A stretch of DNA of 23,182 bases. It comes from a virus. Positions 6,873-7,703 of the stretch are shown here, piece after piece. Positions within the stretch are counted from its first letter, which is position 1. Each line of letters starts with the position of its first letter. Location of the stretch: positions 1 through 23,182 of IMG/VR virus record IMGVR_UViG_3300021602_000289; one strand, given 5' to 3'. The position numbers and the translations under genes were made by a program. The notes below the pieces were generated by a model that did not search any database, had not been told where the DNA came from, and saw only the letters and a program-made list of their open reading frames with translations.

Positions 6873-6902
6873 ATTATACATCACCTAAGATGCTTTTGTC
6901 AA
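6873..6902 (-). promoter_or_regulatory. Consensus promoter of the endolysin unit
   Basis: TTGACA (6902-6897), an 18-base spacer and TATAAT (6878-6873) read leftward. The TAG stop of the HNH gene (6887-6885) sits in the spacer. The leader of about 17 bases contains AAAGGAG before the ATG at 6849. This is the closest match to the sigma70 consensus in the left half of the window. Confidence 0.8.
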
Positions 6903-7157
6903 TCTATTGTATGTCCTAATCCTATGACAATTTGCACACACTACTTCACATTTTGCAATTTCTTTTTTAATTGCTGCCCAAGAAAATCCATCATGAATCA
7001 TTCTTGAAACATTATATTTTTTATCTTTTAAATGATCAAAATCTAAAACAATATGATTAGTTTCTCCACAATCAAAACAACCAGAGGACTCTTTTATTTC
7101 TTTTAAGCGTTGCTTAAATTGCTTTTTGTTATAACTAGCCAACTCTTTGTCAGTCAT
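6885..7157 (-). CDS. HNH endonuclease, small, zinc-ribbon type
   Basis: A 90-residue HNH protein: CFDC (27-30) and CANCHR (74-79) provide the zinc knuckle, LDFDHL carries the Asp41-His42 pair, Asn49 the middle residue and His78 the last His. It is likely a stand-alone nicking or double-strand DNase, comparable to phage HNH proteins that act in packaging or as mobile freestanding homing enzymes. No intron or intein surrounds it. It has its own TGA-TATAAT nine bases before the ATG, and lies directly downstream of the structured RNA at 7187-7274. Confidence 0.85.
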   Translation of the reverse strand: MTDKELASYNKKQFKQRLKEIKESSGCFDCGETNHIVLDFDHLKDKKYNVSRMIHDGFSWAAIKKEIAKCEVVCANCHRIRTYNRLTKAS

Positions 7158-7166
7158 ATTAAGATA

Positions 7167-7175
7167 ATTATATCA
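7167..7175 (-). promoter_or_regulatory. Extended -10 promoter of the HNH gene
   Basis: TGA-TATAAT at 7175-7167 on the minus strand, nine bases before the ATG at 7157; a start point two or three bases upstream of the ATG is expected. The same TGA-TATAAT-N9-ATG layout occurs at 10078-10070. No clear -35 is present. Confidence 0.5.
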
Positions 7176-7186
7176 GCAATTAAAAG

Positions 7187-7274
7187 CCCTACACAGGTTA
7201 TTCCACCACGCATAACGCCACGGTCTCATCCATAAATGGGTAACTAAGCCATCACTAAGGTCCTGTGTAGGGAC
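7187..7274 (-). ncRNA. Candidate structured small RNA closed by a perfect 11-bp helix
   Basis: The 129-base gap between Hsp20 and HNH contains CCCTACACAGG at 7187-7197 and its exact reverse complement at 7262-7272, enclosing 64 bases. On the minus strand a TATAAT at 7286-7281 would start a transcript near 7274, one or two bases before the helix, and the far arm is followed by CUUUU. An inner hairpin GUUAU/AUAAC (10-base loop) and shorter pairings such as GUGA/UUAC are possible. There is no ribosome site or credible reading frame. The shape (promoter at the 5' arm, closed terminal stem, U-run after the 3' arm) is that of an independent RNA of about 90 nt. I could not match it to tRNA, tmRNA, 6S or a riboswitch or ribozyme I know. 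Confidence 0.55.
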
Positions 7275-7280
7275 TATTCT

Positions 7281-7286
7281 ATTATA
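7281..7286 (-). promoter_or_regulatory. -10 element of the candidate small RNA
   Basis: TATAAT at 7286-7281 (minus), immediately after the TAG stop of the Hsp20 gene (7289-7287). The following AGAATAG leads straight into the helix that begins at 7272. No good -35 or TG extension is visible. Confidence 0.5.
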
Positions 7287-7703
7287 CTACTTTATCTTAA
7301 TTACTTTTGGTTTCTTTTCTTCTGGAACAATGCGATCAATACTAATATTAAGCATACCGTCCTTAAGATCTGCACCAGTTACTTCCATATATTCACCAAG
7401 AGCAAAAGATCTTACAAACTTTCTGCCTGCAATACCTTTGTGAACTACCTCAGCATCTGTTACTTCTACAATTTCACCTTTAATTAAAAGTGTTCCATTG
7501 TCTATTGATACATCAATATCATCTCTTGTAAATCCTGCAATTGCAACAGATAAACGATATGTATCTTCATCTAGTTTAAGAAGATCATATGGAGGATATG
7601 ACTGTGAATTTGTTTTATGTAAGTTATTTAAACGGCCCAACTCTCTGTTAAAGCCAATAAAAAAGGGATCATTAAAAAAATGATCCATTGTTGTTGTTAC
7701 CAT
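7287..7703 (-). CDS. Hsp20/alpha-crystallin small heat-shock protein
   Basis: A 138-residue small heat-shock protein: an N-terminal aromatic arm (HFFNDPFFIGFNR), then the crystallin domain from about residue 37 with YRLSVAIAGFTRDDIDVSI, LLIKGE, a beta-sheet RSFALGE and the GMLNISI strand, and a C-terminal VIKIK carrying the I-x-I motif used for oligomer assembly. These ATP-independent chaperones hold unfolding proteins; phage versions are known, mainly in cyanophages. It is preceded by AAAGGGG and a TGC-TATAAT, with a leader of about 55 bases. Confidence 0.93.
   Translation of the reverse strand: MVTTTMDHFFNDPFFIGFNRELGRLNNLHKTNSQSYPPYDLLKLDEDTYRLSVAIAGFTRDDIDVSIDNGTLLIKGEIVEVTDAEVVHKGIAGRKFVRSFALGEYMEVTGADLKDGMLNISIDRIVPEEKKPKVIKIK

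What the first reader, a model, noticed from the sequence alone, without database searches (positions are those of the whole stretch)
7187..7286. Unassigned structured RNA with an 11-bp closing helix, its own -10 and a U-run
CCCTACACAGG and its exact reverse complement enclose 64 bases in an otherwise gene-free gap. On the minus strand a perfect TATAAT places the start one or two bases before the helix and CUUUU follows it. The inner part can form at least one 5-bp hairpin. It sits between a chaperone and an HNH gene and fits no RNA class I know. It could be a phage regulatory RNA, a decoy for host RNA-binding proteins, a new ribozyme or riboswitch, or an element mobilised with the HNH gene.
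Basis: partly seen in the sequence, partly recalled or inferred. Interest (0 to 1): 0.65.

Follow-up and report, generated by a model that had tools for sequence, protein, structure and literature searches.

The report
New phage RNA travelling with nuclease
A large group of uncultured bacterial viruses carries a previously uncatalogued, strongly folded small RNA gene that almost always sits beside one small DNA-cutting enzyme gene; the fold is real, but what the RNA does is still unknown.

Summary
The 11-bp inverted repeat is the closing helix (P1) of an ~86-nt RNA on the minus strand. I found 86 distinct relatives in IMG/VR phage contigs. In them P1 is 99.7% paired, 10 of its 11 pairs show changes on both sides, and G·U outnumbers A·C 17 to 1, which fixes the strand. 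Two inner hairpins and an invariant core, CCUU(A/G)G…GAUGG…UAGUUACC, complete it. Rfam 15 has no match.

A -10 box lies just before P1 whatever gene precedes it (hsp20, pstS, tRNA), so it looks like an independent small-RNA gene, one copy per genome. It is tied to the downstream ~90-aa HNH gene: 76 of the 80 closest HNH relatives have it immediately upstream, and the other four have a truncated copy, a partial copy, or the RNA ~900 nt away. Comparisons between loci suggest that [-10, RNA, HNH] moves as a ~400-bp cassette. The RNA also exists without that HNH, and with a gene inserted between them, which argues against a simple cis leader.

Most likely it is a trans-acting small RNA carried by a homing-type HNH cassette. 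Its target is unknown. A bipartite match to 23S rRNA helix 69/70 (p≈0.004) is a lead, not a result.

The parts
7187..7272 (-). the structured RNA (P1 to P1'), 86 nt
   Evidence: CM R1 match 73 bits, E 9e-17; 86 homologues; covariation
7262..7272 (-). P1 5' strand CCCUACACAGG
   Evidence: 10 of 11 pairs with changes on both sides, 99.7% of cells paired
7187..7197 (-). P1 3' strand CCUGUGUAGGG
   Evidence: as above
7255..7261 (-). linker ACCUUAG (ACCUURG in relatives; invariant CUU core), predicted single-stranded
   Evidence: alignment A4; complementary to 23S rRNA CUAAGGU
7235..7253 (-). P2 hairpin: GAUGG (7253-7249), loop CUUAGUUAC (7248-7240), CCAUU (7239-7235)
   Evidence: 94.8% of cells paired; variation at two pairs is C/U opposite G, with 3 exceptions
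7203..7223 (-). P3 variable hairpin (CCGU.GCGU / GCGU.GUGG here; GGC/GCC type in most relatives)
   Evidence: MFE; partial covariation in relatives
7281..7286 (-). -10 box TATAAT of the RNA, inferred start about 7274
   Evidence: 36 of 41 non-hsp20 contexts have TATAAT with at most 1 mismatch upstream of P1, against 32% of shuffles; loci listed
7167..7172 (-). -10 box TATAAT of the HNH gene, 9 nt before its ATG (near-leaderless mRNA inferred)
   Evidence: same arrangement in relatives
6885..7157 (-). small HNH endonuclease (90 aa), partner gene of the cassette; aligns to the C-terminal part of longer HNH profiles
   Evidence: phrog_2255 E 8e-23, residues 93-173 of 211; linked to the RNA
7287..7703 (-). 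hsp20 small heat-shock protein, the commonest upstream neighbour; not part of the cassette
   Evidence: PF00011 E 9e-17; upstream neighbour in 113 of 139 loci

Best explanation
An independent small non-coding RNA gene of actinophage-like viruses, carried as the first half of a ~400-bp mobile cassette: -10 box, RNA, then a leaderless small HNH endonuclease gene. Shown by sequence: the RNA fold, its strand, its single copy per genome, its own -10 in many contexts, and its linkage to the HNH gene. Inferred: RNA polymerase starts at the first base or two of the long P1 helix; P1 ties the two ends together and protects them; the invariant linker ACCUURG and the P2 loop UAGUUAC are displayed single-stranded and bind a target in trans (a phage or host RNA, or a protein); the HNH enzyme spreads the pair by cutting phage genomes that lack it.
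For: P1 covaries at 10 of 11 pairs; over the whole structure 108 double-change cells against 33 in shuffles, 0 of 500 shuffles reach it. G-U 17 versus A-C 1 in P1 fixes the strand. The core is invariant in sets not selected on it: 61 contigs found by P1 arms, hsp20 loci, HNH loci. There is a -10 before P1 whether the upstream gene is hsp20, pstS, a sulfotransferase-like gene, a tRNA or another RNA module. One copy in each of 22 RNA-bearing records. Upstream genes vary while sequence from about -12/-28 to about +285/+345 is shared. 76 of the 80 closest HNH genes lie 74-80 nt after the invariant core; the other four are a contig cut inside the RNA, a partial RNA, and two with a thioredoxin-like gene inserted between. 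The five records without the RNA lack this HNH. RNA without that HNH: G006/L150.
Against: No transcript data. The U-run is poorly conserved, so the 3' end is unknown and the RNA could be read through into the HNH mRNA. No target has been proved. RNA and HNH sequence distances correlate only moderately (r 0.37, versus 0.25 for RNA-hsp20; bootstrap interval of the difference -0.005 to 0.24), so co-mobility over long times is only partly shown. P3 is poorly conserved in detail.
Confidence: 0.5

Rival explanations
1. Cis-acting leader of the HNH gene: the RNA controls when the nuclease is made (riboswitch-like, attenuator, or timing hairpin, as recalled for T4 homing endonuclease genes).
For: Fixed distance to the HNH ATG (74-80 nt after the core) in 76 of 80 loci; same orientation.
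Against: The HNH has its own -10 7-9 nt from its ATG. In L340, L342 and G015 another gene lies between RNA and HNH. L150 and L167 have the RNA before unrelated genes. No alternative pairing with the start region was seen.
Confidence: 0.15
2. RNA cofactor of the HNH nuclease (loosely HEARO/OMEGA-like): the minimal HNH, which aligns only to the C-terminal part of longer HNH profiles, needs the RNA for binding or targeting.
For: No close HNH gene without RNA traces in 80 independently selected loci; the HNH covers only the C-terminal part of longer HNH profiles.
Against: The RNA persists without this HNH (G006/L150) and next to a longer HNH with an extra N-terminal part (L149). It has no guide-like variable single-stranded end. 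There is no RuvC or IscB-like protein.
Confidence: 0.12
3. Antisense RNA against host 23S rRNA: the P2 loop (UAGUUAC) kisses the loop of helix 69 (GUAACUA, E. coli 1910-1916) while the linker ACCUUAG pairs with CUAAGGU (1925-1931), altering or shielding the ribosome during infection.
For: 14 of 14 Watson-Crick pairs in two blocks at the same spacing as in E. coli 23S. 15 of 4000 shuffles of the core do as well over 16S+23S+5S. Both blocks are the predicted unpaired parts of the RNA. The few linker variants (A to G, C to U) keep pairing by G-U.
Against: The match was noticed after the fact; over the whole interior 13 of 400 shuffles do as well. The spacer varies by 1-2 nt in relatives. Only an E. 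coli 23S was used. From general knowledge the H69/H70 region is at the subunit interface of 70S ribosomes and hard to reach.
Confidence: 0.1
4. A transcription terminator or insulator placed between hsp20 and the inserted HNH gene, with no function in trans.
For: Strong GC-rich stem followed by CUU(U) just after the hsp20 stop codon.
Against: A conserved interior of about 60 nt with an invariant ~20-nt core; U-run weak; the terminator scan finds no minus-strand terminator here; it also follows tRNAs and other RNAs.
Confidence: 0.08
5. A new small self-cleaving ribozyme (three helices around a conserved core).
For: Architecture: closing helix, two hairpins, invariant core; phages carry several ribozyme classes (general knowledge).
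Against: No match to any Rfam ribozyme; the promoter abuts the first base of the helix, which is unusual for a processing ribozyme.
Confidence: 0.05

Closest known systems
Free-standing HNH homing endonuclease genes of phages (T4 mob genes and others; PMC2988022, PMC10448857)
   Same: small HNH gene in an intergenic site, shared between loci with different neighbours, near conserved phage genes
   Different: here the mobile stretch begins with a structured RNA gene with its own -10; this RNA partner was not found described in the papers searched
HEARO / IsrB-IscB OMEGA RNAs (recalled; PMC9755519 describes compact HEARO enzymes)
   Same: a structured RNA next to an HNH-containing nuclease gene, mobile together
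   Different: the protein is a ~90-aa HNH domain without RuvC; the RNA is ~86 nt with no guide region and survives without the HNH; no Rfam HEARO match
Phage-encoded small stable RNAs such as T4 RNA C and D (recalled)
   Same: short phage RNAs of unknown function; in two loci this RNA follows a tRNA
   Different: no sequence or structural relation tested or known
Large phage-associated ncRNAs GOLLD and ROOL (PMC12286853)
   Same: phage-associated structured RNAs found by comparative genomics
   Different: those are large ornate RNAs that form multimers; this is 86 nt

Membership tests
Any Rfam 15 family | covariance-model score at or above the family threshold | tested here: not met
   window: none at gathering score or at E<=10; relatives L143, L140: only a 13.6-bit chance hit
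tRNA / tmRNA | cloverleaf with anticodon, or tmRNA tag | tested here: not met
   ARAGORN finds none
structured RNA (as opposed to a DNA palindrome) | compensatory changes in the stems, with a G-U strand bias | tested here: met
intrinsic terminator | short-loop GC stem followed by a run of at least 5 U | tested here: not met
   none on the minus strand at this site; tail varies
HEARO / OMEGA RNA | adjacent IscB/IsrB-type protein with RuvC and HNH | tested here: not met
   protein is a 90-aa HNH domain
HEARO / OMEGA RNA | RNA directs the nuclease to a DNA target | not testable with these tools
   needs biochemistry
free-standing homing endonuclease cassette | HNH nuclease family member | tested here: met
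   phrog_2255 E 8e-23
free-standing homing endonuclease cassette | same unit in different flanking contexts | tested here: met
free-standing homing endonuclease cassette | cleavage of cassette-free alleles and conversion | not testable with these tools
   needs crosses of phages
riboswitch / cis leader | always in the 5' UTR of the regulated gene | tested here: not met
   intervening gene in L340, L342, G015; other genes downstream in L150, L167
trans-acting antisense sRNA | conserved single-stranded block complementary to a target | tested here: inconclusive
   bipartite 23S H69/H70 match, p about 0.004 for the core, 0.03 for the whole interior

The most novel reading that the evidence does not exclude
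A phage small RNA folds so that a hairpin loop and an adjacent linker base-pair with the loop of 23S rRNA helix 69 and the following CUAAGGU segment, i.e. a virus-encoded antisense RNA that targets one of the most conserved functional sites of the ribosome, spread between phages by a minimal HNH nuclease that is not found without it.
Probability: 0.08. Interest if true: 0.95.

Novelty: new variant of a known kind. Interest (0 to 1): 0.6.

Why it matters
It adds a well-supported RNA family, absent from Rfam 15, to a large group of uncultured phages, and a case in which a homing-type nuclease gene is almost never found without a structured RNA gene. That makes concrete questions testable: does the RNA serve the phage, the nuclease, or the cassette; does it bind the ribosome; and why do related phages place other covarying RNA modules at the same locus.

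Tried and rejected
Rfam at permissive thresholds, ARAGORN: nothing. Isolated phage genomes: no similar RNA by blastn and none in three Streptomyces phages with the nearest terminases (no positive control in that set). Prokaryote genomes (84,980 species): one pattern hit, inside a coding sequence and without P1, so chance. A mini-ORF AUG-NNN-UAG in the core is present in most but not all relatives (linker length varies), so not conserved. The alternative P2 (CC/GG, columns 15-16 with 28-29) is invariant and uninformative; GAUGG/CYAUY fits better. Four core-pattern hits in apparent coding sequence without P1 (L163, L178, L196, L222) and three with only short chance pairing (L162, L195, L206) were discarded. 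Plus-strand transcription: the G-U bias argues against it. My first impression that L144 has a broken HNH was wrong: its frame is open and appears to start inside P1. Literature searches for this RNA found nothing.

Full report
Observation. The inverted repeat is exactly where described: arms 7187-7197 and 7262-7272 around 64 bases, between an HNH gene (6885-7157) and hsp20 (7287-7703), both on the minus strand. An 11-bp repeat with a GC-rich arm within 100 nt is expected 0.06 times in a random window of this composition. Folding energy alone is only mildly unusual. Rfam and ARAGORN give nothing, also at permissive thresholds and for two relatives.

Relatives. A scan of IMG/VR for the exact arms with a 50-80 nt gap returned 61 contigs, and every one is a homologue. 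Independent searches with Hsp20 (inspected), with the core pattern and with the HNH protein brought in relatives with different P1 sequences. 86 distinct sequences were aligned to a covariance model.

Structure. P1: 99.7% of cells paired, 10 of 11 pairs with changes on both sides, e.g. CCCUACACAGG, CCCCGCAUAGG, CCUCACGUAGG, CCUCAUGCGAA with matching partners. For the whole structure there are 108 double-change cells against 33.4 in shuffles, 0 of 500 reach it, and slid registers collapse (first seen). Selection caveat: the 61 exact-arm contigs do not inform covariation, so it comes from the other sets. I kept core-pattern hits only if a helix was found, but the excluded ones were contig-truncated copies or chance hits in coding sequence. 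In P1 there are 17 G-U and 1 A-C cells, so the minus strand of the window is the RNA strand. P2, GAUGG with C(C/U)AU(U/C) around a 9-11-nt loop holding UAGUUAC, is paired in 94.8% of cells; two of its pairs vary, nearly always between G-C and G-U. P3 is a variable hairpin with partial support. The core CCUU..G..GAUGG..UAGUUACC is essentially invariant, also in sets not selected on it.

Transcription unit. A TATAAT-like box lies just before P1 whatever precedes it: hsp20 (113 of 139 loci), pstS-like, sulfotransferase-like, protease, tRNA (L149, L172), or another RNA module. In 41 non-hsp20 contexts 36 have the box with at most one mismatch, against 32% of shuffles; exceptions are largely loci where another structured module lies between box and RNA. 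There is no -35 match. The downstream gene has its own -10 7-9 nt before its ATG, which suggests leaderless mRNAs. I take the start as about 7274; the 3' end is unknown because the U-run is weakly conserved. No transcript data were available.

Linkage to the HNH gene. The RNA is single copy in each of 22 records that have it. 119 of 139 RNA loci are followed directly by an HNH gene. In the reverse direction, of the 80 closest HNH relatives, chosen without regard to the RNA, 76 have it immediately upstream, one contig is cut inside it, one has a partial copy, and two have it about 900 nt upstream with a thioredoxin-like gene between. Among 27 records tested, the five without the RNA also lack this HNH; 21 of 22 with the RNA have exactly one. 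This sample was chosen partly by the RNA, so the HNH-first count is the cleaner test. The RNA can occur without this HNH (L150/G006; L167; L149 has a longer HNH). Different upstream contexts share sequence only from about -12 to -28 before P1; many comparisons end at +283 to +345, near the HNH stop. In L233 the shared stretch starts 28 nt before P1 and carries the same AAAATCAAGTAGTACAATATAA string as hsp20 loci, although the upstream gene is a protease; the pstS locus L109 carries nearly the same. This fits a cassette of -10, RNA and HNH that has moved. RNA distances track HNH (r 0.37) slightly better than hsp20 (0.25), with an interval touching zero, so exchange also breaks the pair up.

Phage group. 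The window's terminase is 53-54% identical to that of Streptomyces phages of the Stanwilliamsviridae type, and 22 of 27 long records tested (18 of them bearing the RNA) have a related terminase. The host is therefore probably actinobacterial (inference). The RNA was not found in isolated phages nor in 84,980 prokaryote genomes apart from a chance coding hit.

Function. A leader of the HNH gene is unlikely (intervening genes, HNH-free loci, a second -10). A plain terminator does not explain the invariant core. I favour a trans-acting small RNA whose linker ACCUURG and P2 loop UAGUUAC contact a target, spread by the HNH nuclease; the first is inference, the second rests on the linkage. One candidate target: these two blocks are exact reverse complements, at the same spacing, of GUAACUA (1910-1916, loop of helix 69) and CUAAGGU (1925-1931) of E. 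coli 23S rRNA. 15 of 4000 shuffles of the core do as well over all rRNA, 13 of 400 for the whole interior. It was noticed after the fact and is a lead only.

Novelty. No curated RNA family matches, and the papers searched do not describe it. HNH genes as mobile phage elements are well known; an HNH gene so consistently paired with an independent structured RNA is the new part.

Noticed in passing
L079, L118, L064, L112 and others, after hsp20 or before tRNAs: A 25-30-nt H-type pseudoknot, consensus N4-CCUGRGYAUG-N4-UAAAACURCYC, in about 33 distinct copies with both stems covarying; no Rfam match. Often at the 5' end of the endolysin mRNA or right before a tRNA or another RNA.
   Followed up: partly
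L065, L131, L164, L245 (before the RNA) and L063, L106: Another small module, GUCG-GGGGAGACAG-CGAC-UAAAUACCUGG, whose outer stem changes in a paired way; sits between the -10 and either this RNA or the pseudoknot. Longer modules (AUCUGC...GCAGAU; CUUGUGUG...CACACAAG) also occur at the same place.
   Followed up: partly
L144 3667-3749 (-): HNH start codon appears to lie inside the 3' strand of P1, in the relative with a 16-bp P1.
   Followed up: no
window 7167-7172 and relatives: -10 boxes 7-9 nt before start codons are common in these phages, which suggests leaderless translation.
   Followed up: no
window 6888-7157: Pfam reports Cytochrome c552 just above its cut-off for the HNH protein, evidently a spurious hit.
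   Followed up: yes
L340, L342, G015: A thioredoxin-like gene (MKSIY...) is inserted between the RNA and the HNH gene, with its own -10.
   Followed up: partly
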